A stretch of DNA of 39,300 nucleotides from Chryseobacterium gleum (lineage in GTDB: Bacteria > Bacteroidota > Bacteroidia > Flavobacteriales_D > Crocinitomicaceae): assembly GCA_945888595.1 (NCBI GenBank), contig CAMDAO010000010.1, positions 1-39,300 of the forward strand, given 5' to 3'. The notes beneath the pieces are model-generated. The model saw nothing but the letters and a program-made list of their open reading frames with translations, made no database searches and was not told the origin of the DNA. Below, one piece after another: positions 135 to 37,830 of this stretch. The position numbers and the translations under genes were made by a program. Position 1 is the stretch's first letter. The number at the start of each line of letters is the position of its first letter.

Positions 135-181
135 GTTGCTATTTTTTTAATTTTTCGCCATTACTCTAGGAGCTGCAAGAT

Positions 182-289
182 TTACAATAAATTGATTACG
201 CAGGTATTAACTGTATTGGGTGTCTGCTGTGAAAATAAATTACCAGCAAAACCAATTGCGATTAAAATAATTAACTTTTTAATAGTCAT
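182..289 (-). CDS. Possible 35-aa secreted micro-protein, coupled to the T9SS gene
   Basis: On the minus strand an ATG (289-287) overlaps the TGA stop of the upstream T9SS gene as ATGA, the usual arrangement for translational coupling. The peptide starts MTIKKLIILIAIGFAGNLFS, a good Sec signal peptide with a likely cleavage before QQ, and has only about 14 further residues including one Cys before a TAA. A different frame continues just beyond the stop (VNLAAPRVMAKN then stop), so this may be a frameshifted remnant of a slightly longer protein. Function unknown. The signal-peptide character and ATGA overlap are what is seen; expression is inference. Confidence 0.35.
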   Translation of the reverse strand: MTIKKLIILIAIGFAGNLFSQQTPNTVNTCVINLL

Positions 290-2733
290 TCTTTAATTAA
301 TGTGATCGTACCAGTCATAACATCTTCTTTATCAGAACCCTCTCCGTTGAAAAAAATCATATAGTAATAGCTTGATACCGGCATTTCTTTTCCTTTATAA
401 GTTCCATCCCAAGGTGCTAATGAATATTGTCCTTCTTTTGAACGATAGATCTCATTACCCCATCTATTATAAATTATCACAAAGTTTGATGGGTATTTCT
501 CATCCAGTCCTATGATCTCCCAAGTGTCATTTTCTCCATCTCCTCCGGGTGTAAACGCTGTTGGAATAATGATATCACAAATCTCTTCAGTCACAGTAAC
601 TATTGCAGATGAAGGATTAGGACATGGTGCAACCGCCACAATTGCATAGGTATACACTCCTGAACCCAAAGGCTGTGGTGACCATGTACCTCCCATATCC
701 GGCGTTCCTCCTAATTCAGTAAAAAGTGAAGTTGCTGTAACTGTTACATCAGAACAGATAAGCAAATCCCCATCAATACCCGCATTTGGAGGTGAACTTA
801 TTTCAATATTAAATGTCGCAATTGCATCGACTGCACATGGCGGACTAGCCGTAACTGTATAACTTATTATGGCTGTTCCTGAAACAAGAGCCGAAACGTT
901 TCCAGAAGCATCAACAATTACAACTGATGTATTTGAAGATGTCCAGACACCACTAGCATCGCCATCTGATGCTAATATTGCAGTCCCTGCCTCACACAAA
1001 GCTGCACTTCCACTAATCGTCCCTGCATCTGGAACAGTTACTTCTGTAACAATAATATTTGCAAAAGCGTCAGCACAACCGGCAGCTGTTACTGTATAGG
1101 TATAGGTTCCAGGTAATAAAGTAGCCGGATCGTAGGTTCCCAAGTTTGCTCCTGTTAAGCCTCCAGACCATGTTCCTGTTGCTGCTGGAGTTCCACCCAA
1201 TGAAGCAAATAAGTTGATCGGTGTGCCTGTTTCACATACTGATGCAGGTCCATTACTTCCAGCATTTGGAGCAGCTGACTCAGTTACCGTTACTGTTGCT
1301 GTCGCATCAGCACAACCCGCAGCTGTTACTGTATAGGTATAGGTTCCAGGTAAAAAAGTAGCAGGATCGTAGGTTCCCAAGTTTGCTCCTGTTAAGCCTC
1401 CAGACCATGTTCCTGTTGCTGCTGGGGTTCCACCCAATGAAGCAAATAAGTTGATCGGTGTGCCTGTTTCACATACTGATGCAGGTCCATTACTTCCAGC
1501 ATTTGGAGGAGCCGTTTCTGTAACCGAAACTGTAGCGGTTGCATTTGGACACCCACCTGTTCCTACAACCGTGTAAGTATAAGTACCGGGGGTCATTGTC
1601 ACAGGATTATAAGTACCAAGATATCCTCCAGTCGTGACTGATGGACCCGACCAAGTTCCCGTGGCTGCAGGAGTTCCACCCAATGAAGAATAGAGATTCG
1701 CAGAAGCGCTATTCGAACAGAAATTTGCAGAACCATTCGTTCCTGCGTTTGGTGGCGCAGTTACCGCAACGGTTGCAGAAGCACAGGTTGTTATTCCACA
1801 TAAATTTTGATTAGCAACATAATAGGTGGTCAGTGAGCCGGGAGAAACAGTTATACTGGCACCTGTGCCGACTAAAGTTCCCCCACATGAACCTGAATAC
1901 CATTTTGAAGATGATGTTCCACCTGTCGCTGTTAATGTGGTACTCCCACCGCTGCATATACTTGTGGTACCTGTTATTCCTGAAGGTGCAGGATTTACAG
2001 GATTGGTGATTTCAAAAGCACTGATGTAAATGTTCTGCTCCCTAGGATCACTTACACTTGTTAAAGCAGCCGGACTTGAGCCGCAACTTAATGTTGGCGG
2101 ATGCCCCGTAGCACTTGAATATGTGATAACTATTAGTGCAACTGACGTAAAAGAAACATCTGCGGCATTGCTAGTATTACTCGACCCGCAGGAGGAAGTG
2201 CCAGTGAGTGTATTTCCCGCCAAGGTCGCATTTGCACAATTTTTAGTTATTGTAGGCGTCGCAGCTGTTGTCAGATCTGCTTCGTAACCTTGAATTGTTA
2301 CCTGGTCAATAAAACGGTTAGTAGCAGCAACTCCACATACGTGCGAATTTAAACCCAATATACTAAAATTGACAGGGTATTCTGTAACAGCTCCACCACT
2401 TGCGTTTTTAAATGTTATAGTCATTGTTGCTGTGGATGTACAATTTGTCCAATCCACAACCATATCCATACCAAATCCGTAAGTTGCAGTGGCATTAGTA
2501 TATCTGGGATACCCTCCAGTTTTCCATGGACCTCCTGACATGGTAACATCCGCATAAACACAACCAGAATAAGAAGTAAACTCCTGATTATCTGGATCGG
2601 ATCGAAGATTCGTTGCAGTGAGTTGACCATTTGGCCAATTGGTTCCGCTGTAAAAGCTTATATACTCCTGGCTGAAAGAACTAGAACTAAAAATAAAAAG
2701 GGTAAATAAATTGAGAAAAAGCACTTTCTTCAT
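286..2733 (-). CDS. Secreted multi-repeat protein with T9SS type B (gliding motility-associated) C-terminal domain
   Basis: An 815-residue protein from the preferred start MKKVLFLNLF at 2733; upstream in-frame ATGs at 2751 and 2781 would spoil the signal peptide (residues 1-22, ending SSSFSQ). After the signal comes a domain of about 220 residues related to that of the neighbouring T9SS protein, then tandem Ig-like/SprB-type repeats rich in Gly, Thr and Pro, two of which are almost identical. The last ~90 residues, from PTAFTPGGDGENDTW through YNRWGNEIY to the end, are the type B sorting domain read by the type IX secretion system. The mature protein is therefore expected at the cell surface or in the medium, perhaps as an adhesin. 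It lies downstream of the other T9SS gene on the same strand (143-bp gap). Confidence 0.88.
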   Translation of the reverse strand: MKKVLFLNLFTLFIFSSSSFSQEYISFYSGTNWPNGQLTATNLRSDPDNQEFTSYSGCVYADVTMSGGPWKTGGYPRYTNATATYGFGMDMVVDWTNCTSTATMTITFKNASGGAVTEYPVNFSILGLNSHVCGVAATNRFIDQVTIQGYEADLTTAATPTITKNCANATLAGNTLTGTSSCGSSNTSNAADVSFTSVALIVITYSSATGHPPTLSCGSSPAALTSVSDPREQNIYISAFEITNPVNPAPSGITGTTSICSGGSTTLTATGGTSSSKWYSGSCGGTLVGTGASITVSPGSLTTYYVANQNLCGITTCASATVAVTAPPNAGTNGSANFCSNSASANLYSSLGGTPAATGTWSGPSVTTGGYLGTYNPVTMTPGTYTYTVVGTGGCPNATATVSVTETAPPNAGSNGPASVCETGTPINLFASLGGTPAATGTWSGGLTGANLGTYDPATFLPGTYTYTVTAAGCADATATVTVTESAAPNAGSNGPASVCETGTPINLFASLGGTPAATGTWSGGLTGANLGTYDPATLLPGTYTYTVTAAGCADAFANIIVTEVTVPDAGTISGSAALCEAGTAILASDGDASGVWTSSNTSVVIVDASGNVSALVSGTAIISYTVTASPPCAVDAIATFNIEISSPPNAGIDGDLLICSDVTVTATSLFTELGGTPDMGGTWSPQPLGSGVYTYAIVAVAPCPNPSSAIVTVTEEICDIIIPTAFTPGGDGENDTWEIIGLDEKYPSNFVIIYNRWGNEIYRSKEGQYSLAPWDGTYKGKEMPVSSYYYMIFFNGEGSDKEDVMTGTITLIKE
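1071..1507 (-). repeat. Near-identical 237-bp tandem duplication inside the T9SS type B gene
   Basis: The stretch 1071-1270 recurs at 1308-1507 with only a few substitutions, an exact offset of 237 bp (79 codons). Each unit encodes one Ig-like repeat (from SNGPASVCETG to CADA). A third, diverged repeat lies at higher coordinates (about 1510-1760). The near identity suggests recent duplication or gene conversion, and the copy number may vary between strains. Confidence 0.9.
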
Positions 2734-2876
2734 AGTTGTTGTATTTATCATTTGTATTAATAATGATCTAGTTGATAACATAGTTTATCATATAAAAGTA
2801 TAATTTAACAATAGAACGTAATGTCCATTCTAACAAAAAAAAATATAGACATAACATAAAAACACGAAAACTGCTC

Positions 2877-4169
2877 TTACTTTTTAATAACCAGCTTTTC
2901 AGTATATACTTTATCGCCCACAACAACTTTAATCAAAAAGATTCCTACTGAAAGATCACTCGTTTTAATCTTAAGCAGTGTAGAGCCCTGCACTTCAAAT
3001 TTTTCATCAATAACAGGAATAACCAATTTCCCTATCGCATCAAAGATCTCCACCGTATAATTTTCTCGGTAATCATGCGCAATAACAAGATTAACATCAT
3101 CATCCGTTGGATTCGGAAAGAGCTGTAGACCATTTGACAGATTCGTACATGGCCATTCTGTTGAGAGTACCCCCAATACTTCATTTGAACCATCATAATC
3201 TGTTTGGGAGAGACGGTAGTAAGACAAACCGCCTAGTGGTCGATCGTCAATTACATTATAGCTAGATAAAAAATTCGTTGAACCGGATCCCGAAACCTTT
3301 TTAATGATTTTAAAATTTAATCCATCTGAAGAACGTTCTATGTTAAAATAATCATTGTTTTGTTCCGAGAGGGTTACCCATTTTAATTGTGTAATATTTT
3401 CAGCACAAACAACATTGAATTCAAGCAATTCAATTGGTAAAATTGTAGCACAGCTGTTACTTCCACTAATACTTCCTATTGTTATGTGTTGCCTTCCAGG
3501 ATCAGCGCAAGCAGACCTTGAACTAAGACAATTTGCTTGTCCACCGGTCGCACATGTATTTGGAGTTGGTGCCAACGACATAACATCAACAGTGGCTGCA
3601 GACGAATATGTTATTGTAATTACAGTTGGTGAGCCATTAATAGTGAAATTAACTGCCCCAGCAAGCCCATTACAAACTGCATTTCCAATAACAGTAACGG
3701 TTGCTGTTCCTGACCCCGAAATTGTCTGTTCAGTAGGTTGGACAGCGGCTGCCGAAACTGTACCATTATTGGTGTTAATAATGACCCTATCTGTCCAAGC
3801 ACCTGAACAACCAAACGAATAGCAAGCTGAGTTACGATTGATATCAAAAATGGAAAATGTCGGATTTAATATTGCAGGATTGAATGTCAAAGTTACTGTT
3901 GTTGAGGTAGTTTTATTGACCCAATTATTATCTACCGACAAACCGGTTCCATTTGAGGGACTGTATGTAACACCTGCATCATCATATCTTGGGGCAGAGT
4001 TTTGAAAATTCGATCCTGCAACCTGAGTGCGCATAGAGCATGAACCTACAGTTCTAGTAATATCAGTTGATCCTGTCGGCCAAGTATTAAAATCAAGACG
4101 AGCTAATTGCCCATTAACACTTAAAATCTGCACACTAAATAGTATCACTAATCCAAAATAATTCCTCAT
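2877..4169 (-). CDS. Secreted protein with T9SS type A C-terminal sorting domain
   Basis: A 430-residue protein with a signal peptide (MRNYFGLVILFSVQILSVNG). Residues ~21-230 resemble the N-terminal domain of the adjacent T9SS type B protein. Residues ~235-340 contain LPIELLEFNV and FNIERSSDGLNF, a segment common before Flavobacteria sorting signals, and YYRLSQTDYDG. The last ~85 residues (LQLFPNPTDD, EIFDAIGKLV, GIFLIKVV, EKLVIKK) form the type A Por-secretion signal. The protein should cross the outer membrane through T9SS and may be anchored to surface lipopolysaccharide. It is divergent from the TPR-HTH regulator across a 150-bp AT-rich gap, so that regulator is a candidate controller. 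Molecular function is unknown. Confidence 0.87.
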   Translation of the reverse strand: MRNYFGLVILFSVQILSVNGQLARLDFNTWPTGSTDITRTVGSCSMRTQVAGSNFQNSAPRYDDAGVTYSPSNGTGLSVDNNWVNKTTSTTVTLTFNPAILNPTFSIFDINRNSACYSFGCSGAWTDRVIINTNNGTVSAAAVQPTEQTISGSGTATVTVIGNAVCNGLAGAVNFTINGSPTVITITYSSAATVDVMSLAPTPNTCATGGQANCLSSRSACADPGRQHITIGSISGSNSCATILPIELLEFNVVCAENITQLKWVTLSEQNNDYFNIERSSDGLNFKIIKKVSGSGSTNFLSSYNVIDDRPLGGLSYYRLSQTDYDGSNEVLGVLSTEWPCTNLSNGLQLFPNPTDDDVNLVIAHDYRENYTVEIFDAIGKLVIPVIDEKFEVQGSTLLKIKTSDLSVGIFLIKVVVGDKVYTEKLVIKK

Positions 4170-4319
4170 GTATATAGTTAATTTTTGTTATGCAAATGAC
4201 CGAAAAAAGAGATATATTATATAATTATTTATATATACAATATATATATATATCGTTTTACCCTGTATAACAATATTAATACATTGTATATTTGTAATTG
4301 AATTGAAAGCAAAAATATT
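4170..4319. promoter_or_regulatory. Divergent AT-rich control region with TAnnTTTG box for the regulator gene
   Basis: The gap between the T9SS gene (minus) and the regulator gene (plus) contains a long alternating AT tract (about 4210-4255) that could melt or bend. A Bacteroidota-type -7 box TATATTTG sits at 4287-4294, 25 nt before the regulator ATG. No convincing -33 TTG is seen at the 19-nt spacing. Confidence 0.45.
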
Positions 4320-5918
4320 ATGTATTTAAAGAGATCAGCGATTATTCTACTAAGTTTAGCCCCACTTTCTTTTATATCTCAAAAAACGCATTACCATGCC
4401 GAAAAGATCATTGATTGGGCCGAAAAACACAAGGATGAATTCCCAAAGCAATCTATTGATACCCTGGAACGAACTGAAAAAACTATTCGTACTGGGAATT
4501 ACCTTGATCGTGCCATTCTACTTGATAAACTCACCTTTATGTACTTTTTTGACCTGTCAAACTATGATCTTGCCTTAAGAACAGCTCAAAGAATCGATTC
4601 TCTTGCCACTGTTTCCTGCGATAAAAGGATTAAGATCCTTTATTATGCAAACATGGGAATGCTCTACTATGAATCTAAAACAAGCATTCAAAAAGGATAT
4701 GAGTACTTCCGAAAAGCCTACGAACTGAGTTTGAAAGAAAAATCCAATTTCCATATCGAATTCATCCTGAACAATTATGCGGTGAGCATAATGAACGAGA
4801 CCAATTACCAGGAGGCTTTGGATAAATTTAGATTAGCTGACGAATATGCTAAGAAACATGGCGACAAAAGACAACAATCGATCATTCACGACAACATGGG
4901 GATCTGCTACCTTATTCAGAGAAAAATGAAAGAGGCAGAAACCTACCTCAACAGTTCATATCAAATCGCACAAAGATCGGAAGGAGCCGATGATGACGCT
5001 GAAAGAGCTTCATATCTTGCTAAGTTCTATCTAGATCAAAATGAATTGGACAAAGCGTATAGATTCGTTCAGCTTGCTCTCAAATATAAGTCTTCGATCA
5101 GGTCAATGCAGATAATTTCGTTTATCTATAAAACATATTCAGACATTGAAAAAAAGAAAAAGAACCTGATGGCTGCGCTAAATGCTATGGACACTTGTCT
5201 TATGTATCGGGATAGTATAGATTTCGTAAATATGTCCAAACAACTATTGGCGATCGAAAGCAACGTTCATATAAATGAAATTCAGTTTAAAAACAGGCTT
5301 GAAAACGAGAAAATGAACAGCATCAGAAAGACTGAGAATATACGCTATCTCTTAATTATACTGACCCTGATGGTAATTTCATTTTTAGCATTTACCTTGT
5401 TCCTTAGGCTAAGGAATAGATCTAGGCTTTCTCAGATAGAAAATGTTCGTGTAATACTTGAAAAAGAAAATTTAGAACTCGAATTATCAGCAAATGAAAG
5501 AGAAGTAACCGCCAAATCATTATACATATTTGAAAAGGACACCCTAATCAATAATATTTTGAATACACTCAAAAAGCTGGAAGCTAACTCGCAAGAAATT
5601 CAAAAAGATGAGATACAAAAAGCTATTAATGACCTAAAGTTTTCAGTTAACAATAAGAGCTGGGATGAATTCGAACTGCGATTCAAAAAGGTTCATCCAA
5701 ATTTCTATCGCTCAATGGAAACAGATTTCCCAAGGTTAACAATTAATGAGAAGCGACTTTGTGCATTTCTAGCAATGGATATGACAACCAAAGACATATC
5801 GACCATCACTGGGCAGACGGCTCATAGTATCAATATCGCACGTTCACGAATGAGAAAGAAACTTGGGCTTACGAACGAAGAAATAAATTTATCGCAATTC
5901 CTCAGTCGTTTTAAATGA
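4320..5918 (+). CDS. TPR-transmembrane-HTH (LuxR-like) regulatory protein
   Basis: A 532-residue protein of a layout common in Bacteroidota. It has an N-terminal signal/anchor segment (to about residue 21), a helical TPR array (about 60-300, e.g. NMGICYLIQRKMKEAETYLN), one transmembrane helix (about 342-364, YLLIILTLMVISFLAFTLFL), a coiled coil (about 370-400) and a C-terminal LuxR/GerE-like helix-turn-helix (about 471-530, LTINEKRLCAFLAMDMTTKD, then a SINIARSRMRKKLG recognition helix). There is no histidine-kinase or receiver domain. The TPR part probably faces the periplasm and the HTH the cytoplasm, making it a one-component transmembrane regulator. Its divergent position suggests control of the T9SS genes, but that is inference. 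Confidence 0.82.
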   Translation: MYLKRSAIILLSLAPLSFISQKTHYHAEKIIDWAEKHKDEFPKQSIDTLERTEKTIRTGNYLDRAILLDKLTFMYFFDLSNYDLALRTAQRIDSLATVSCDKRIKILYYANMGMLYYESKTSIQKGYEYFRKAYELSLKEKSNFHIEFILNNYAVSIMNETNYQEALDKFRLADEYAKKHGDKRQQSIIHDNMGICYLIQRKMKEAETYLNSSYQIAQRSEGADDDAERASYLAKFYLDQNELDKAYRFVQLALKYKSSIRSMQIISFIYKTYSDIEKKKKNLMAALNAMDTCLMYRDSIDFVNMSKQLLAIESNVHINEIQFKNRLENEKMNSIRKTENIRYLLIILTLMVISFLAFTLFLRLRNRSRLSQIENVRVILEKENLELELSANEREVTAKSLYIFEKDTLINNILNTLKKLEANSQEIQKDEIQKAINDLKFSVNNKSWDEFELRFKKVHPNFYRSMETDFPRLTINEKRLCAFLAMDMTTKDISTITGQTAHSINIARSRMRKKLGLTNEEINLSQFLSRFK

Positions 5919-6248
5919 TTATCTTTATGCTAATCCGCTTAAAGTCAACAAAGGTAGCAACTACAACGTGGATACTAAAATATTATAATTAAAACACAGA
6001 AAGGTCAAATAGCCACTCAACCATAAGATTAACTTAATTGAAAAACTCTTGGTTGATTTTAGGATTTTCAACAATAAAATCTGCAAAGCCTAATTTTTGT
6101 TCTGTTTTCATTCTTAAAGTTAATAAACAACCAAAAAAAGGATTAAAACTTAAATTAATTATTGACAATCAAATCATTAATATAATTTCATCCTTGAAAC
6201 GGTCGTATTTATGTTAAAATTTAAGAAAAACCTTTGCGTTATAAATAA
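5919..6248. other. Gene-poor interval holding a transposase relic
   Basis: No full-length gene is visible. The minus strand holds a short decayed transposase-like start (5989-6111). Near 6223-6235 a promoter-like AACCTTTGCG string (one mismatch from TAnnTTTG) points toward no gene. No tRNA or CRISPR-like repeats were found. Confidence 0.5.
5989..6111 (-). pseudogene. Possible decayed N-terminus of an IS5-type transposase
   Basis: From an ATG at 6111 the minus strand reads MKTEQKLGFADFIVENPKIN then QEFFN, a TAA stop (6036-6034), and in the same frame VNLMVEWLFDLSVF before a second stop. Read through the first stop (CAA to TAA would explain it), FFN-x-VNLMVEW resembles the FFxQINxLIDW segment near the start of IS5-type DDE transposases in Bacteroidota, as I recall that family. 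No catalytic region or terminal inverted repeats survive. Too short for certainty. Confidence 0.33.
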
Positions 6249-6292
6249 AAAAAAGAGGCTTCTCAATTATGTTTTGAGACAGCCTCTTTTTT
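6249..6292 (-). terminator. pckA terminator
   Basis: A 12-bp stem (6249-6260 with 6281-6292; core GAGGCT/AGCCTC) carries an inner TCTCAA/TTGAGA extension. On the minus strand it is followed by a U-run (from the A-run at 6247-6254). It lies just after the pckA stop codon. The right arm ends in six T bases, so it can also stop plus-strand transcription. Confidence 0.82.
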
Positions 6293-6305
6293 ATGAAATT
6301 ATCTA

Positions 6306-8113: not shown

Positions 8114-8794
8114 CTATATTAAATCCTTAAGTGCTTCGATTGCTGTTTTTATGTTGTTTCTAACATCTGAAATAGAAGCATTCATCATATAGCAGGGAGC
8201 TGTGATAATATTATATTTTTTGTCAATTTCGATCTCTCGAATGTTTTTCATTTCGCAATGAACGCCAATTTTTGAAAGTTCATCTGAAAAAGAGTGTATG
8301 TCATAAGGAGATGGTTCTTCTGCTGTTCCCATTGTCATTTTGACTTTTATAGCAGATCCTTGCAGCGCTTTAGCCACAACAATTGGACTAACACACAAAG
8401 CAACAATTGGTTTTCCTATGTTTATTAAATTTACAAGTAATAATTTTACTTCGGGGAGGATTGCTCCATCTGATCCATTAAATGCCCATTTTGTTAAACT
8501 TTTAGCATTTCCGAAACCACCAGGAATTACCAAAGCATCTAAATCAACAGGTTGAACATTTTTTATGTCTACTATTTCTCCTCTAGAAATGCGAGAAGCT
8601 TCTATTAACATATTTCGGGTTTCATTCATTTCTTCGCCAGTTGTGTGGTTGATTACATGATGCTGGTTGGCGTTTACACCTATACAAAAATATTCAAATC
8701 CTGCTTCTTCTATAGCCAACATTGTTAATACAGTTTCTTGGATTTCTGACCCGTCAAAAACGCCACATCCTGAAAGTAATATTCCGATTTTCAT
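8114..8794 (-). CDS. elbB: ElbB-type glyoxalase of the DJ-1/PfpI superfamily
   Basis: A 226-residue protein beginning MKIGILLSGCGVFDGSEIQE, the hallmark N-terminus of the ElbB (isoprenoid biosynthesis glyoxalase) family; the usual length is about 217-220. The nucleophile-elbow Cys is in PIVALCVSPIVVAKAL, and PGGFGNAKSLTKWAF is the conserved glycine-rich loop. ElbB acts on small aldehydes such as glyoxal in vitro; its true role in the cell is not settled. It is upstream of pckA on the same strand but 190 bp away with a promoter box between, so co-transcription is unlikely. Confidence 0.92.
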   Translation of the reverse strand: MKIGILLSGCGVFDGSEIQETVLTMLAIEEAGFEYFCIGVNANQHHVINHTTGEEMNETRNMLIEASRISRGEIVDIKNVQPVDLDALVIPGGFGNAKSLTKWAFNGSDGAILPEVKLLLVNLINIGKPIVALCVSPIVVAKALQGSAIKVKMTMGTAEEPSPYDIHSFSDELSKIGVHCEMKNIREIEIDKKYNIITAPCYMMNASISDVRNNIKTAIEALKDLI

Positions 8795-8937
8795 ATTTTT
8801 TATTTTTTGAGTAGACCAAATTAATTATTCTTAAGTGATTATAAAAATCAAATTGCGTCTATTTAAAAATTAATTTTATTGTTGCATGCATATTAATTGA
8901 TTTTGGGTAATTTTATCAAAAATTAGTTATCAAAAAA

Positions 8938-9561
8938 ATGAAAAATACCGTTGTTCTCTTGTTAAGTGCGCTTGTTATTGCAAGCAGTTTTATTGGTTGT
9001 AAAAAAGGGGAAAATGACCCATTGTTATCACTTCGCAGCCGAAAATCTAGATTAGAAGGTAATTGGGTTATCGTAAAAGAAGAAGTGTCAGAAACGAATA
9101 TAAATGGATCTACCACTGAGGCTATACAGTCTGTCTATGATGGTGAAATGAAAGTTACTACTTCAACAACGACAGTTGGAACTATAGCAACAACGGTGAT
9201 TGATACCGTTAAATACACCTTTAATTTCGATATTAAAAAAGATGGGAATTATAAAATGATCGCTGCAAATGAGAATAAAATTGATATTGTCACAACGGAA
9301 GGTACATGGCTTTTTCTAGGGAAAAGTAAGTTGAATGGCTTAAAGAACAAGGAGGCAATTTTACTAACAACTAGTAAACAGGTCGTTTCTTCAAATCCAG
9401 TCGCAAATTCAGTGAATTATGAGAATTTAAATGGGTTAACCATTGTAATTGATGCGTTGAAAAACAAAGAAATGATGACAATTGTGGAAGAAAATAGTAG
9501 CAATGAAGACGGTTTAACTTCGTCTAAGAAACTCACAAAAACAACCTACAGCCATCCTTAA
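8938..9561 (+). CDS. Predicted lipoprotein, lipocalin-like, unknown function
   Basis: A 207-residue protein with an N-terminal lipoprotein signal: hydrophobic stretch to residue ~18, then SFIGC with the lipidated Cys at 21. After a short linker comes RLEGNWVIVKEE, the opening of the lipocalin-like 'remaining mass/stress' domains common in Bacteroidota, followed by alternating beta-strand-like segments (YTFNFDIKKDGNYKM, TEGTWLFLG). Thr-rich between residues 60 and 80. Probably anchored to the periplasmic face of a membrane. A terminator follows. No specific function can be assigned. Confidence 0.75.
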   Translation: MKNTVVLLLSALVIASSFIGCKKGENDPLLSLRSRKSRLEGNWVIVKEEVSETNINGSTTEAIQSVYDGEMKVTTSTTTVGTIATTVIDTVKYTFNFDIKKDGNYKMIAANENKIDIVTTEGTWLFLGKSKLNGLKNKEAILLTTSKQVVSSNPVANSVNYENLNGLTIVIDALKNKEMMTIVEENSSNEDGLTSSKKLTKTTYSHP

Positions 9562-9586
9562 AATGATGATTTTAAAATAATTAAGT

Positions 9587-9618
9587 AAACCGAAATGAGA
9601 AATGATTTCGGTTTTTTT
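9587..9618 (+). terminator. Terminator of the lipocalin-like lipoprotein gene
   Basis: A perfect 10-bp stem (AAACCGAAAT 9587-9596 with ATTTCGGTTT 9605-9614), 8-nt loop and T-run to 9618. The T-run overlaps the stop codon of the converging minus-strand lipoprotein gene. Confidence 0.8.
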
Positions 9619-10069
9619 ATTCGAAAATATATTTAATTTTTTCTGGCCAACCTGCTAGCGTTAAATAAATCTCACTTCCTTTTGACTTTTTAATGGAAAG
9701 ATCAGAAATATCAATGGTGATTGTTTCAAATGTTACTTTTTTACAATCATCATTGGTTGTTGTATCGATTAATTCAATGAAGCGAATAGGTGGCATTGAC
9801 TTCGCTATTGATGCACTTCCGATCATTTGAAAATCGTGCTCGATGCATCCACCAGTATATTTGATATCAAGTGTTAGTAGATTGGCAGATAGTTTCACAG
9901 ACATAATTTGTAGCGGTTTTGAAATTGTCGCTGATCGCCCTATTTTTGCTATGACAATTTTTTTCGGGGTTATTGTGGCGCTCTCTTTTTGAATTTTTGA
10001 TTCAGAAATTAGCTGTTTCTCAGAGGCGCAACTAGCAGCTAAGAAAAGGAAGAAATAGAAATTTTTCAT
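9617..10069 (-). CDS. Small predicted lipoprotein, unknown function
   Basis: A 150-residue protein starting MKNFYFFLFLAASCASEK, with a short lipoprotein signal and probable lipidated Cys14. The body has YTGGCIEHDFQMIGS, FIELIDTTTNDDCKKV and a closing LAGWPEKIKYIF, with two Cys that could form a disulfide. I recognise it only as a small conserved-looking Bacteroidota lipoprotein. Convergent with the other lipoprotein gene and divergent from rimO (212-bp gap). Confidence 0.7.
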   Translation of the reverse strand: MKNFYFFLFLAASCASEKQLISESKIQKESATITPKKIVIAKIGRSATISKPLQIMSVKLSANLLTLDIKYTGGCIEHDFQMIGSASIAKSMPPIRFIELIDTTTNDDCKKVTFETITIDISDLSIKKSKGSEIYLTLAGWPEKIKYIFE

Positions 10070-10269
10070 CGGTAGATTATTTGTTTTTTAATTGTCACAT
10101 GCATACGCGCCTTCATTTTCATTTCATCAAATGGATTCTGTGAATTTGTAATCAAATATAATACCATTCATTAAAATTAAACCATATTTATACATGAATT
10201 ATGCGATTTATTTTAAGTGGACGATGTATCAATTTCTAGGATGTCAATTTACTATCCTATTTATTTCAT

Positions 10270-10277
10270 TAACTTTG
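10270..10277 (+). promoter_or_regulatory. rimO -7 box implying a leaderless mRNA
   Basis: TAACTTTG ends four bases (CACC) before the rimO ATG at 10282. Since TAnnTTTG is centred near -7, the transcript would start at or within a base or two of the start codon. Confidence 0.5.
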
Positions 10278-10281
10278 CACC

Positions 10282-11595
10282 ATGAAAACAAAGACGCTAA
10301 AAAAGAATAAAGTAAATGTCATCACTTTAGGTTGCTCTAAAAACACATTCGATTCTGAAGTGTTAATGGCTCAGTTGAATGCGAATAAATTTGACGTTGA
10401 GCATGAGTCAACATCTGATGATGCCGAAATTGTGATCATCAACACCTGCGGTTTTATTGATAATGCGAAGCAGGAATCAATCGATATGATTATTCAATAT
10501 GTGGATGCCAAAGCGGAGGGGTTAGTTGAAAAAGTTTTTGTTACGGGTTGTTTATCTGAAAGATATAGAGCCGATTTAGAAGGAGAATTTCCAGAAGTTG
10601 ATGCTTTTTTTGGTACGCGTGAATTACCTCGTTTACTAAAAACATTAAAAGCAGATTATAAGCATGAACTAGTGGGAGAGCGATTACTTACAACGCCATC
10701 TCATTATGCTTATTTTAAAATTGCTGAAGGATGTGATCGTCCTTGTTCATTTTGTGCGATTCCTATTATGCGTGGAAAACATATTTCTACGCCAATAGAA
10801 GATTTAATTACTAGCGCTAAAAGTCTGGCCGCAAAAGGGGTGAAAGAACTGATGCTTATTGCGCAAGATTTGACGTATTATGGTTTAGATATTTATAAAA
10901 AAAGAAACTTAGCTGAATTAGTTGAACGTTTATCAGAAGTGGAAGGAATTGATTGGATTCGATTGCATTATGCGTTTCCAGCAGGTTTTCCAATGGATGT
11001 TTTAGAGGTAATGAATGCAAAAGTGAACGTGTGTAATTATCTAGATATTCCATTGCAACATGGGTCTACTAAAATTTTGCAAGCGATGCGACGAGGTATT
11101 ACGCGAGAAAAGACGGAAGAATTAGTTGCGAACATACGTGAAAAGGTTCCGGGTATTACCTTACGAACAACTTTGATTGCTGGATATCCAGGTGAAACAG
11201 AAGAAGATTTTCAGGAAATGTACGATTTTGTTGAACGAAGTCGTTTTGATCGATTAGGAATATTTACCTATTCTCACGAAGAAAATACGCATGCGCATGA
11301 ATTTGAAGATGATGTTCCTGCAAAAGTAAAACAAGAAAGAGCGGATAAAATAATGGAGTTGCAGTCTGGAATTAGTTTTGAACTCAATCAATTAAAAATT
11401 GGCAGGGAATATAAAGTTTTATTTGATCGAATAGAAGGTGACTATTTTATAGGAAGAACAGAATTCGATTCGCCAGATGTAGACAACGAAGTGTTGGTTT
11501 TGAAATCTAGCGGATATGTTAGAATCGGTGACTTTGCTAATGTGTGCATTACCAGTGCTGATCATTATGATTTATTTGGTGAAATTGTTGGATAA
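10282..11595 (+). CDS. rimO: Ribosomal protein S12 methylthiotransferase (radical SAM)
   Basis: Adds a methylthio group to the conserved Asp of ribosomal protein uS12 (Asp88-89 in E. coli numbering). The 437-residue protein has the three domains in order: N-terminal MTTase domain with the second cluster cysteines (C18 in VITLGCSKN, C56 in INTCGF, C90 in VTGCLSERY), the radical-SAM motif CDRPCSFC (C151, C155, C158), and a C-terminal TRAM-like domain ending DHYDLFGEIVG. The GCSKN signature and the S12-type ending separate it from MiaB. No Shine-Dalgarno is present, and a -7 box ends 4 nt before the ATG. Confidence 0.95.
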   Translation: MKTKTLKKNKVNVITLGCSKNTFDSEVLMAQLNANKFDVEHESTSDDAEIVIINTCGFIDNAKQESIDMIIQYVDAKAEGLVEKVFVTGCLSERYRADLEGEFPEVDAFFGTRELPRLLKTLKADYKHELVGERLLTTPSHYAYFKIAEGCDRPCSFCAIPIMRGKHISTPIEDLITSAKSLAAKGVKELMLIAQDLTYYGLDIYKKRNLAELVERLSEVEGIDWIRLHYAFPAGFPMDVLEVMNAKVNVCNYLDIPLQHGSTKILQAMRRGITREKTEELVANIREKVPGITLRTTLIAGYPGETEEDFQEMYDFVERSRFDRLGIFTYSHEENTHAHEFEDDVPAKVKQERADKIMELQSGISFELNQLKIGREYKVLFDRIEGDYFIGRTEFDSPDVDNEVLVLKSSGYVRIGDFANVCITSADHYDLFGEIVG

Positions 11596-15815: not shown

Positions 15816-15900
15816 GGAGAGATGGCAGAGCGGTTGAATGCACCGGTCTTGAAAACCGGCGTACTGTGAGGTATCGGGGGTTCGAATCCCTCTCTCTCCG
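15816..15900 (+). tRNA. tRNA-Ser(UGA)
   Basis: An 85-nt cloverleaf. Acceptor GGAGAGA (15816-15822) pairs with TCTCTCC (15893-15899), discriminator G 15900. Anticodon stem CCGGT/ACCGG (15843-15847, 15855-15859) encloses loop CTTGAAA with anticodon TGA (15850-15852), reading UCA and other UCN codons. The long variable arm typical of class II tRNAs follows, then T-arm GGGGG-TTCGAAT-CCCTC with one G-U pair. CCA is not encoded. The last 12 nt are repeated at 17834-17845 as part of an 81-bp direct repeat, marking this tRNA as an integration site. Confidence 0.97.
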
Positions 15901-15969
15901 CTGAAAAGGTTTGAAGTTTGCTTCAAACCTTTTTTATTTTAGCGGAATTATTTTGAAAATTCTGGGAAT
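15889..15969 (+). repeat. Left direct repeat (attL-like) at the tRNA-Ser 3' end
   Basis: This 81-bp block starts 12 nt inside the tRNA and runs through its terminator. It recurs at 17834-17914 with an offset of 1945 bp and two mismatches (15943 and 15945). A repeat that starts in a tRNA 3' end and flanks cargo is the classic footprint of tyrosine-integrase insertion. Confidence 0.85.
15904..15935 (+). terminator. tRNA-Ser terminator
   Basis: Perfect 13-bp stem (15904-15916 with 15921-15933), TTTG loop, T-run to 15935. It is duplicated in the right repeat at 17849-17880. Confidence 0.88.
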
Positions 15970-16497
15970 GCAGGATCAAACGGATCAAGTCGAATTGTTG
16001 TGGACAAATTAAAAATATTATTCCATTATAAATTATAAAAAAGACCATCGATTTTGCTTCGATTATCATTCCCTCACTTTTCCTTGATGAAGAGAAAATG
16101 TAATTTTCGAAGAAGAACAAATACTATTTGTGAAGACTGAACGTTAGTGAAAGGATCGGTAGTGCAGGAGGTAAGCAAAAATCAAGGACATTTTAAGGAA
16201 GTTTCTACTCTTTCGAAAGTTGTACTTTCTCTCTCTGCGTAAAACCGCACGTAAATACTCTTCTTCATTCCTTGCTCTATCGTTTAGTCTTCAAAAGAGA
16301 TGCTTTTTCTTTTTCGCTGAAAAAGCGAAACGCAATTACGAAGAAATTTACAGCTACTTCTTTAAAATATCCAAACTTTCAAGCTTCACAAGTATTCATT
16401 ATTCATTCAAAAAATCAATATACTAGAATTTCCCCACAAGTTTTAGGTTTGATCCCAATTTTTTTGGTGTGGTGCTAAAAAAAAACGTATCTACATT
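15970..16497. other. Islet left part with no recognisable gene
   Basis: About 530 bp between the left repeat and the Fic control region. Short open frames on both strands (e.g. 16220-16426, 16272-16478, and 15923-16120 on the minus strand) have Phe/Ser/Lys-rich low-complexity translations and no family features, so I do not call them. A small hairpin (TTCGCT/AGCGAA near 16312-16328) and a TAGGTTTG promoter-like box at 16444-16451 are the only marks. Confidence 0.5.
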
Positions 16498-16583
16498 CGG
16501 ATATTTACGGATAAATACGGATATTTTATTTGTTTGAATTGGATATATTTTCGTATATTTACGAATAAATACGGATATTTTAT
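16498..16583 (+). promoter_or_regulatory. Phased direct repeats, candidate operator of the Fic gene
   Basis: CGGATA occurs at 16498, 16508 and 16518, a period of exactly 10 bp. A second cluster has CGTATA, CGAATA and CGGATA at 16552, 16562 and 16572, again 10 bp apart. In total 29 bp (16501-16529) recur at 16555-16583 with one mismatch, the second copy running into the ATG at 16582. Same-face phasing suggests cooperative binding, plausibly by the Fic protein's own winged helix. Confidence 0.6.
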
Positions 16584-17622
16584 GAGTTTAGTAATACATA
16601 CATTGAAACTTGATTTGGGCATGAAACTCATGACTGAATTAAGTAAAATAGACAGATTTGATGCTTCCTGGGCAACTATTGAAAAGCGTGAAGGCGCTTC
16701 TTTGAAACAATTAAAATCCATTGCCACGGTAAGAAGTGTAGGGGCTTCAACCAGGATTGAGGGTTCAAAGATGACGGATGATGAAGTAGCCGTTTTGATT
16801 GAAAAATTGTCTATTTCCAAATTAGAAGAAAGAGACGAGCAAGAAGTAATCGGTTATTTTGAAGCCTTAGATACGATCGCTGAAAACTATGAATCCATCA
16901 GTATTTCTGAAAGCCAAATAAAAAACGTACATAAAATATTGATGCTGCATGGTGATAAAGATGCCTGGCATAGAGGAAACTACAAACAAGTAAGTAATGC
17001 CGTAGAAGCTAATTTGGTTGATGGTACGAAGCAAATTGTATTTAGAACTGCTGAACCAGGATTAGAAACACAGGATGCCATGATGCAATTGTTTGAATGG
17101 TATCATTCAGATAAGGAAACAATTCCTTTGGTTAAGGCAGCTTTGTTTGTTTACGAATTTTTAAGTATCCATCCATTTCAAGATGGCAATGGAAGATTAA
17201 GCAGATTACTTGGTAGTTTACTGCTCTTGAAAAATGGGTATTCATGGATTCAATATGTCAGTTTTGAACATGAAATTGAAAGTAGAAAATCGGAGTATTA
17301 CAAAGTGCTCATACAAACGCAGCGAAACAGGCCAGGTGAAAATGTTACGGACTGGCTAACTTTTTTTATCAGTTGTTTGATAAATATTCAGGAGCAGTTG
17401 CTGGTTAAATTAGAAGAAAGCAGAACAGAACAGCCCGTTTCACAACGAGAGAAGCGCATCTTATTCTTTATACAAAACCACGCAGGATGTGGGTCTAGTG
17501 ACATAGCTAAGAAACTTGACATGGCTTTGCCAACCGTAAAGAAATCTTTGGCTGAATTAGTTTTAAAAGGAGCCATAACCAAAGAAGGACAGGGTAAATC
17601 GACAGGGTATTTTGTAGTTTGA
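16582..17622 (+). CDS. Fic-domain protein (predicted AMPylase) with C-terminal winged helix
   Basis: A 346-residue protein from MSLVIHTLKL at 16582 (a further in-frame ATG at 16534 lies within the repeats; M14 at 16621 is an alternative). The complete Fic motif HPFQDGNGRLSR begins at His197, so transfer of AMP or another nucleotide phosphate to a protein hydroxyl is expected. An N-terminal inhibitory motif S-x-x-x-E-G (S56-T-R-I-E60-G61) makes it a class II, self-inhibited Fic protein. Residues ~287-346 form a MarR-like winged helix (SSDIAKKLDMALPTVKKSLA, then GKSTGYFVV). Target unknown. It is the only clear gene in the tRNA-bounded islet and has no adjacent antitoxin gene, consistent with built-in inhibition. 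Confidence 0.92.
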   Translation: MSLVIHTLKLDLGMKLMTELSKIDRFDASWATIEKREGASLKQLKSIATVRSVGASTRIEGSKMTDDEVAVLIEKLSISKLEERDEQEVIGYFEALDTIAENYESISISESQIKNVHKILMLHGDKDAWHRGNYKQVSNAVEANLVDGTKQIVFRTAEPGLETQDAMMQLFEWYHSDKETIPLVKAALFVYEFLSIHPFQDGNGRLSRLLGSLLLLKNGYSWIQYVSFEHEIESRKSEYYKVLIQTQRNRPGENVTDWLTFFISCLINIQEQLLVKLEESRTEQPVSQREKRILFFIQNHAGCGSSDIAKKLDMALPTVKKSLAELVLKGAITKEGQGKSTGYFVV

Positions 17623-17833
17623 TAAGATAGATTTTAATTGAAGTTTTTTGAAATGAAAATAAATCAAAAATTTGTTTAGGTTCGGGATTCTTTGTAAATT
17701 TAAACCTTTGCAAGAGGGAATTTGGCATTAACGGTCGCCCTGCCTAAAACCATTTTGCAACTTGTGACGTTGACGCGTCACGAACAATGACAAATAATTG
17801 ATAATCAGTAAAATAGTATATTCGGTGTGAGAG

Positions 17834-17914
17834 CCTCTCTCTCCGCTGAAAAGGTTTGAAGTTTGCTTCAAACCTTTTTTATTTTAGAGCAATTATTTTG
17901 AAAATTCTGGGAAT
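17834..17914 (+). repeat. Right direct repeat (attR-like)
   Basis: Copy of 15889-15969 with two mismatches. It carries the last 12 nt of tRNA-Ser without the rest of the tRNA, followed by a duplicate of the tRNA terminator (17849-17880). Bases before and after differ from the left copy, fixing the ends of the repeat. Confidence 0.85.
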
Positions 17915-17971
17915 ATACTATTTTCAAACAAGTTTTAGCCTTCTGATGCGCTGCTTAATCTATTTTATCCT

Positions 17972-37008: not shown

Positions 37009-37830
37009 ATGGAAAAACAAAATGCAATAAAAATATTTAATAGTTCAAAAATTCGGACTCAGTGGCATGATGAATATGAAAAATGGTATTTTTCTATCGT
37101 TGATATAATTTCAGTTTTAACCGAAAGTCCAAATCCTCAGGTCTATTGGCGAGTGTTAAAAAAACGATTAATTGCTGAAGGAAATGAAACCGTTACAAAT
37201 TGTAACGGTTTGAAAATGCAAGCTGTTGATGGTAAGATGAGATTGACGGATGTGGCTGATAATGAAGAGCTTTTTAGAATAATTCAATCCATTCCTTCAC
37301 CAAAAGCAGAACCATTCAAACAATGGCTAGCAAAAGTTGGCAGTGAGCGAATCGATGAAATTGAAGACCCTGAAATTGGTTTTGATCGTTTAATGGAAAC
37401 TTATCTTAAAAAAGGATATTCTAAAGAGTGGGTAAATCAACGTTTGAAAAGTATTGAGGTTAGAAAAGAGTTGACTGATGAATGGGGAGTTCGGGGCGCG
37501 AAGGTTGGAAAAGAATATGCAATTCTTACAGATGAGATAACCAAAGCTTGGTCAGGTTTTTCGACTAAAGAATATAAAAATTTTAAAGATCTTAAAAAAG
37601 AAAACTTAAGGGATCATATGTCAAATTTAGAGTTAGTATTAAATATGCTTGCTGAAGCTTCCACTAATGCAATTTCTAAAAATAAAAAACCTAAAACAGT
37701 TCAAGAAAATAAACATATTGCTAATCAAGGAGGTACAATTGCTGGAAATACGAAAAATGAAATAGAACTGAAGTCTGGAGTTAAAATTGTAACGAGTGAA
37801 AATGCTAAAATGAAGAGACTAAATGAATGA
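37009..37830 (+). CDS. BRO-N / prophage antirepressor-like protein
   Basis: A 273-residue protein whose first ~115 residues match the BRO-N domain found in phage antirepressors, baculovirus BRO and DinD-type proteins: KWYFSIVDIISVLTESPNP, a VYWRVLKKRL helix, TNCNGLKMQAVDGKMRLTDV, then RIIQSIPSPKAEPFKQWLAK. The central part (EIGFDRLMETYLKKGYSKEW, VNQRLKSIEVRKELTDEWG) is common to the chromosomal group of this family. The C-terminal ~50 residues are Lys/Asn-rich and likely disordered. No phage genes are nearby. Its stop overlaps the recG start by 8 bp, so it is probably co-transcribed with recG. DNA binding is likely, true function unknown. A 25-bp perfect palindrome lies in its coding sequence. 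Confidence 0.82.
   Translation: MEKQNAIKIFNSSKIRTQWHDEYEKWYFSIVDIISVLTESPNPQVYWRVLKKRLIAEGNETVTNCNGLKMQAVDGKMRLTDVADNEELFRIIQSIPSPKAEPFKQWLAKVGSERIDEIEDPEIGFDRLMETYLKKGYSKEWVNQRLKSIEVRKELTDEWGVRGAKVGKEYAILTDEITKAWSGFSTKEYKNFKDLKKENLRDHMSNLELVLNMLAEASTNAISKNKKPKTVQENKHIANQGGTIAGNTKNEIELKSGVKIVTSENAKMKRLNE
37187..37211. repeat. 25-bp perfect palindrome inside the BRO-N gene
   Basis: AAACCGTTACAA-A-TTGTAACGGTTT, a perfect inverted repeat with one central base, spans the codons for ETVTNCNG. The protein segment looks conserved in the family, which may partly explain it, but codon choices make the symmetry exact. Confidence 0.75.

What the first reader, a model, noticed from the sequence alone, without database searches (positions are those of the whole stretch)
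15889..17914. Integrase-less Fic islet bounded by 81-bp direct repeats at tRNA-Ser(UGA)
The last 12 nt of tRNA-Ser plus 69 nt downstream, including its terminator, recur 1945 bp later with two mismatches. The interval holds one confident gene, a self-inhibited Fic protein fused to a winged helix. This looks like a minimal satellite-type island: att sites and a single cargo gene, with mobility presumably supplied in trans. A defence or host-control role would fit a mobile single-gene Fic unit but is inference.
Basis: partly seen in the sequence, partly recalled or inferred. Interest (0 to 1): 0.75.

Follow-up and report, generated by a model that had tools for sequence, protein, structure and literature searches.

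The report
Fic gene between duplicated tRNA ends
A single toxin-like gene (Fic) sits beside a tRNA gene between two copies of an 81-base stretch of host DNA, and a survey shows that relatives of this gene in unrelated bacteria often sit between long host-DNA duplications, as if they spread without carrying any gene for moving themselves.

Summary
In detail: tRNA-Ser(UGA), two 81-bp direct repeats (two mismatches, found nowhere else in the genome) and one Fic-winged-helix gene between them. A sister species has the same islet. The reading as an att-bounded satellite is only partly right. In another species of the genus, an element with a tyrosine integrase sits at the same tRNA with an att core of only about 13 bp. 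The last ~200 bp of our islet are 89% identical to that element's right end, arm-type motif and core included. The left end and integrase are absent; instead 81 bp of tRNA end, terminator and flank are duplicated, and the islet lies next to a ~20-kb inversion breakpoint. Across 76 Fic-wHTH loci, 20 have long direct repeats around Fic, against 1 of 115 control genes; in 11 independent cases the repeat is essentially confined to Fic. This resembles 'insertion with long target duplication' described for restriction-modification genes; YhcG genes show it too (5/29). I favour capture of a defence-type Fic cargo gene with the stub of an integrative element, by one-sided illegitimate recombination. 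No exact empty site was found; mobility and phage defence are untested.

The parts
15816..15901 (+). tRNA-Ser(UGA), whose 3' end is the attachment site
   Evidence: ARAGORN; an integrase element at the same tRNA in G004
15889..15969 (+). Left (upstream) copy of the 81-bp direct repeat: last 13 nt of the tRNA (att core CCTCTCTCTCCGC), terminator hairpin, ~40 nt flank
   Evidence: core defined by comparison with G004
15973..16461 (.). Insertion of ~490 bp of interspersed-repeat DNA, absent from the sister species; not part of the original islet
   Evidence: gap in G003; 67 hits in own genome
16489..16589 (+). Tandem operator-like repeats (47 bp, spacing 54) at the Fic promoter
   Evidence: family D3; CGTATC/CGTATA-type repeats upstream of almost all homologues
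16582..17622 (+). Fic protein, class 2 (N-terminal inhibitory motif), with C-terminal winged helix
17629..17833 (+). Right end of a tRNA-Ser integrative element, with arm-type motif TTTTGCAACTTGTGACG
   Evidence: 89% identical over 229 columns to G004 C575 end (17629-17852)
17834..17914 (+). Right (downstream) copy of the 81-bp direct repeat, beginning with the att core
17915..17945 (.). Inversion breakpoint zone: beyond it the sequence is the native upstream region of SUI1

Best explanation
The islet is a captured fragment, not an intact mobile element: a self-inhibited, probably autoregulated Fic gene of defence type plus the right-hand ~200 bp of an integrative element that uses the 3' end of tRNA-Ser(UGA). 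Shown: an element end with a tyrosine integrase lies at this tRNA in a sister species; the matching right end is conserved in the islet up to and including the ~13-bp core; left end and integrase are absent here; 81 bp of tRNA end, terminator and flank are duplicated instead. Inferred: Fic was cargo near the right end of an integrated copy in a relative, and the piece Fic + right end + core + flank recombined with an empty tRNA-Ser site by homology on the right and by a non-homologous join on the left, 68 bases past the tRNA, leaving the target stretch duplicated (insertion with long target duplication, by homology-facilitated illegitimate recombination). The same outcome, with other targets, recurs around this Fic family. 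Function (inferred): an AMP-transferase held off by its N-terminal helix and repressed by its winged helix at tandem operators, which on infection or stress poisons the cell, as proposed for SoFic.
For: Right end shared with G004 up to the core, left end different; integrase domains. Flanking direct repeats >=50 bits in 20/76 Fic-wHTH loci against 3/209 same-size intervals, 1/115 distant genes (p=2.6e-8), 1/76 inverted and 1/225 cross-locus pairs, 0/21 other Fic. In 11 independent cases the repeat is essentially confined to the two sides of Fic genome-wide. Targets are unrelated gene ends and terminators, with no conserved element ends. Repeat copies at mpl differ mainly at silent sites, as if one came in from a relative. 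Islet beside an inversion breakpoint, as reported for restriction-modification genes. Fic dS 0.024 against ~0.14 in neighbours. Operators; PADLOC SoFic.
Against: No exact empty site for the window or any other locus. The 81 bp start exactly at the core, which a purely homologous/illegitimate model does not require on the left. The two repeat copies do not sort by orthology between the two species, so order of events is unclear. Some repeat-flanked Fic genes sit among multi-copy repeats, where target duplication need not be invoked. The G004 element is split over two contigs and carries no close Fic. Defence function untested.
Confidence: 0.5

Rival explanations
1. Integrase-less satellite islet: the repeats act as attL/attR, the element's attP carried the tRNA end plus terminator, and an integrase from a resident or incoming element moves the Fic unit in trans.
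For: Genuine right att end with arm-type motif and core next to a tRNA used by an integrase element in G004. Several other Fic-wHTH genes lie 0.4-0.6 kb downstream of a tRNA on the same strand: Asn, Lys, Gln, and in G005 Lys, G028 Arg. At tRNA-Gln in L127 an 82-bp tRNA end + terminator repeat is also seen, though Fic lies outside it.
Against: No left element end or left arm motif; the repeat is far longer than the 13-bp core; most repeat-flanked relatives are not at tRNAs and no common ends exist.
Confidence: 0.23
2. Decayed remnant: a full integrative element once sat here, and deletions removed all but Fic and the right end; the 81-bp repeat was its normal long att repeat.
For: Right-end homology to a full element at the same tRNA; Fic could be its cargo.
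Against: The G004 element shares only the core with its flank, not 81 bp; no other element gene or pseudogene was seen in the islet.
Confidence: 0.17
3. The repeats arose with the neighbouring inversion or by a local tandem duplication, and Fic's presence is coincidental.
For: The islet lies within about 30 bp of an inversion breakpoint specific to this lineage.
Against: Strong enrichment of flanking direct repeats around the same gene family elsewhere.
Confidence: 0.07

Closest known systems
Insertion with long target duplication of restriction-modification genes (Nobusato et al. 2000, as described in PMC3031569 and PMC1643837)
   Same: Small gene unit without recombinase between long direct repeats of variable target DNA; linked to an inversion; toxin-like, selfish type of gene.
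   Different: One Fic (or YhcG) gene instead of a restriction-modification pair; Bacteroidota instead of Helicobacter; here with the end of an integrative element attached; no empty allele seen.
tRNA-associated integrative elements of Bacteroidota with Arm-DNA-bind_5 tyrosine integrases (as at G004 tRNA-Ser)
   Same: Same tRNA, same core, same right end and arm-type motif.
   Different: No integrase, no left end, no Toprim/AAA/HTH genes; 81-bp rather than 13-bp repeat.
SoFic anti-phage Fic proteins (class 2; PMC12249575)
   Same: Single protein, N-terminal inhibitory motif, Fic core, PADLOC SoFic model E=3.4e-48 over residues 44-341.
   Different: Far below NCBIfam's SoFic equivalog cut-off (59 against 550 bits); no AS1-like partner identified; activity unknown.
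Mobile mystery protein B (TIGR02613), a Fic family named for mobile contexts
   Same: Fic core similarity (E=6.3e-6).
   Different: Far below its cut-off (26 against 124 bits); no partner protein A seen.

Membership tests
tRNA-associated integrative element | Direct repeats including the tRNA 3' end at both boundaries | tested here: met
tRNA-associated integrative element | Own site-specific recombinase | tested here: not met
   only Fic between the repeats
tRNA-associated integrative element | Both element ends with arm-type sites | tested here: not met
   right arm motif present, left absent
tRNA-associated integrative element | Empty site in a relative | tested here: inconclusive
   genus tRNAs without the islet exist but the right flank differs through an inversion
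Insertion with long target duplication | Long direct repeat of target DNA confined to the two sides of the gene unit | tested here: met
   window and ten other loci
Insertion with long target duplication | No recombinase and no conserved ends | tested here: met
   for the window; for the family (operators and a minor motif only)
Insertion with long target duplication | Target present once in genomes lacking the gene unit | tested here: inconclusive
   mpl 3' end single in 60/60 other Hymenobacter, but its right flank lies elsewhere there
SoFic defence protein | Match to the curated SoFic models | tested here: inconclusive
   PADLOC E=3.4e-48; NCBIfam equivalog cut-off not reached
SoFic defence protein | Fic active site with N-terminal inhibitory motif (class 2) | tested here: met
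   HPFQDGNGR and S56-x-x-x-E60-G61 invariant
SoFic defence protein | Anti-phage activity by AMPylation | not testable with these tools
   needs plaque assays with active-site mutants

The most novel reading that the evidence does not exclude
Single-gene defence-type units (this Fic-winged-helix family, and YhcG) form a recombinase-free class of mobile unit in Bacteroidota and neighbouring phyla, entering gene ends and terminators with long target duplications, so that they spread as the selfish restriction-modification genes of Helicobacter are thought to.
Probability: 0.35. Interest if true: 0.7.

Novelty: new variant of a known kind. Interest (0 to 1): 0.5.

Why it matters
How single genes without any recombinase become mobile is an old open question, raised for restriction-modification genes. 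If Fic and YhcG defence-type genes enter genomes with long target duplications, the repeats give a simple sequence signature for finding such insertions, ordering them in time, and testing whether toxicity or uptake by recombination drives their spread. The islet also shows a concrete case of an integrative element reduced to one cargo gene and one end.

Tried and rejected
Conserved ends for a Fic transposon: none apart from the operators and a minor downstream motif. Integron-like attC sites as explanation of the repeats: looked at by eye only, core motifs not seen in the L138 and L208 repeats. All repeat-flanked cases as target duplications: rejected for L114, L172, L138, L103 and L208, whose repeats occur 6 to 36 times per genome; in G062/G435 Fic is one cassette of a repeat-separated gene array with other cargo in G435. 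Repeat-rich neighbourhood as explanation: rejected by inverted-repeat, cross-locus and gene controls. Empty site in Hymenobacter: target single but right flank elsewhere. Operator scan outside Fic promoters: none at a strict threshold in 0.9 Mb, but that threshold also misses most promoters (32 of 87 found). Viral contigs: only one close Fic relative, the rest about 30% identical. One search stopped on an N after its first part, one search failed, and alignment A1 had malformed input; none carries weight beyond what is cited. The dnaE value was read in the wrong frame and is ignored. Not done: copy number of the YhcG repeats, structure prediction, search of our genome for a G004-type integrase.

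Full report
What is there. The tRNA-Ser(UGA) gene is at 15816-15901. The stretch 15889-15969 recurs at 17834-17914 with two mismatches. It consists of the last 13 nt of the tRNA, its terminator and about 40 nt more. A search of the whole genome finds these two copies and otherwise only a diverged second tRNA-Ser. Between them lies one confident gene, a 346-aa Fic protein with a C-terminal winged helix. It has an intact HPFQDGNGR active site and the N-terminal inhibitory motif S-x-x-x-E-G, invariant in six homologues.

The sister species. Genome G003, about 95% identical in the flanks, has the same islet with both repeats, so an assembly artefact is unlikely. It has only about 1.36 kb between the repeats. 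The additional ~490 bp in our genome (15973-16461) is interspersed-repeat DNA with 67 hits in this genome and 77 in G003. In the nine other genus members whose tRNA-Ser(UGA) was read, no second copy of the tRNA end lies in the stretch fetched.

A real element at the same tRNA. In G004 the same tRNA is followed directly by a tyrosine recombinase with Arm-DNA-bind_5, SAM_5 and Phage_integrase domains. A second G004 contig, with Toprim, AAA and HTH genes, has a 229-bp stretch 89% identical to window 17629-17852. That stretch runs through the 13-nt core CCTCTCTCTCCGC, after which G004 continues with a different terminator. The motif TTTTGCAACTTGTGACG occurs near both G004 ends and once in the islet, at its right end. 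That the two G004 contigs are one element is likely but not proven. So the islet's right boundary is a genuine attR-type end, its left end is missing, and the duplication extends 68 bp beyond the core.

An inversion. In G001 the order is glyA - tRNA-Ser ... pckA ... folD - lpd - 161-aa gene - 193-aa gene - SUI1. In G003 and our genome the segment between glyA and SUI1 (about 20 kb) is inverted: glyA lies next to the 193-aa and 161-aa genes, and tRNA-Ser faces SUI1 (in our draft genome the two junctions are on different contigs). The breakpoint falls between 17914 and about 17945, beside the islet. This is why no exact empty site exists among the held relatives.

The family. Homologues of 44-99% identity were collected: 80 loci from genome contigs, one viral contig, and relatives. 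The gene is sparse: 7 of 395 genomes drawn from the phylum have it at E<=1e-80. Almost all carry upstream tandem CGTATC/CGTATA-type operators. For 76 loci with enough flank, a direct repeat of at least 50 bits between the 900 bp upstream and the 900 bp downstream of Fic was found in 20 (the window and G003 share one event). Controls: 3/209 same-size intervals, 1/115 distant genes of 250-500 aa in the same loci (Fisher p=2.6e-8; 4/168 with neighbours), 1/76 inverted and 1/225 cross-locus pairs, 0/21 loci of other Fic clades.

What the repeats are. Genome-wide copy counts split them. In eleven independent cases (the window, L091, L166, L164, L136, L160, L144, L162, L149, L106, L143) the repeat occurs essentially only on the two sides of Fic; L164 has two further weak partial hits. 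In others (L114, L172, L138, L103, L208) it is a multi-copy repeat; in G062 and G435 Fic is a cassette in a repeat-separated gene array with other cargo. Targets of the two-copy class include the 3' ends of mpl and dapA (named here from their sequence), the 5' ends of a flavin-oxidoreductase-like and a methyltransferase-like gene, and terminators. At mpl and dapA the copy next to the gene body completes the gene and the other copy is a detached end. Five of the six mpl differences leave the protein unchanged, as expected if one copy came with the insert from a related genome. In 60 of 60 other Hymenobacter genomes mpl has a single 3' end. YhcG/DUF1016 genes, another candidate defence family, have such repeats in 5 of 29 loci (copy number not tested).

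Recent movement. Between our genome and G003, Fic has 5 silent differences in 212 silent sites (dS 0.024); ten neighbouring genes pool to about 0.14. Fic has therefore been exchanged after the species split, or is unusually constrained. The repeat copies themselves do not sort by orthology, so the order of events is open.

How it most likely works. The pattern matches what Kobayashi and colleagues called insertion with long target duplication for restriction-modification genes (quoted in PMC3031569, and PMC1643837), which they also link to inversions. Homology-facilitated illegitimate recombination, known in naturally transformable bacteria (discussed in PMC2884548), could give such a structure when one side of the incoming DNA pairs by homology and the other joins without it; that it makes duplications of this kind is my inference. 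Here the incoming piece would be Fic, the element's right end, the core and the flank. The protein resembles SoFic, a class 2 Fic that acts as a one-protein anti-phage system (PMC12249575); PADLOC's SoFic model matches at E=3.4e-48, while NCBIfam's SoFic equivalog does not pass. Defence and autoregulation are inferences.

Verdict. The satellite reading is partly right about origin, and not supported about the att sites and completeness. The interest lies in the family pattern more than in this single locus.

Noticed in passing
window 15973-16461: About 490 bp of interspersed-repeat DNA with imperfect inverted ends (GGATCAAAC / GTTTGATCC); pieces of it match 67 places in this genome and 77 in the sister species. 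Looks like a nested, MITE-like repeat family.
   Followed up: partly
window 178-6305: About 6 kb (genes at 286-2781, 2877-4169, 4320-5918) is missing at this place in sister species G003, where 1-177 and 6306 onward lie next to each other.
   Followed up: no
G003 C2 181334-204239; window 17915-17945: A ~20-kb inversion between glyA and SUI1 is shared by our genome and G003 against G001/G007.
   Followed up: yes
L270 (G062 C81) 8300-10800; L269 (G435 C233): Gene arrays in which single genes or pairs are separated by a repeat present ~36 times per genome; a 206-aa gene plus Fic travel as a 2.3-kb cassette, with other cargo between the same repeats in the relative.
   Followed up: partly
L239-L268 (YhcG/DUF1016 loci): 5 of 29 YhcG genes are flanked by direct repeats of 128-416 bp, like the Fic genes.
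   Followed up: partly
L177 7029-7068; L152 7036-7071: The Fic operator-like sequence is repeated directly after the Fic stop codon.
   Followed up: no
L099 1-242: A tRNA-Ser in another Flavobacteriales genome is followed within ~180 bp by a second copy of its 3' end, with a Fic gene 87% identical to ours 2 kb further on; the tRNA is probably an attachment hotspot.
   Followed up: no
L097 2653-4385: A Fic 94% identical to ours sits directly after a truncated type I restriction (HsdR-like) gene and a second, unrelated Fic protein; the record is labelled Bifidobacterium breve, which is probably a mislabelled MAG.
   Followed up: no
window 37009-37830: A BRO-N domain gene, another single gene of a type often found on mobile elements and phages.
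   Followed up: no
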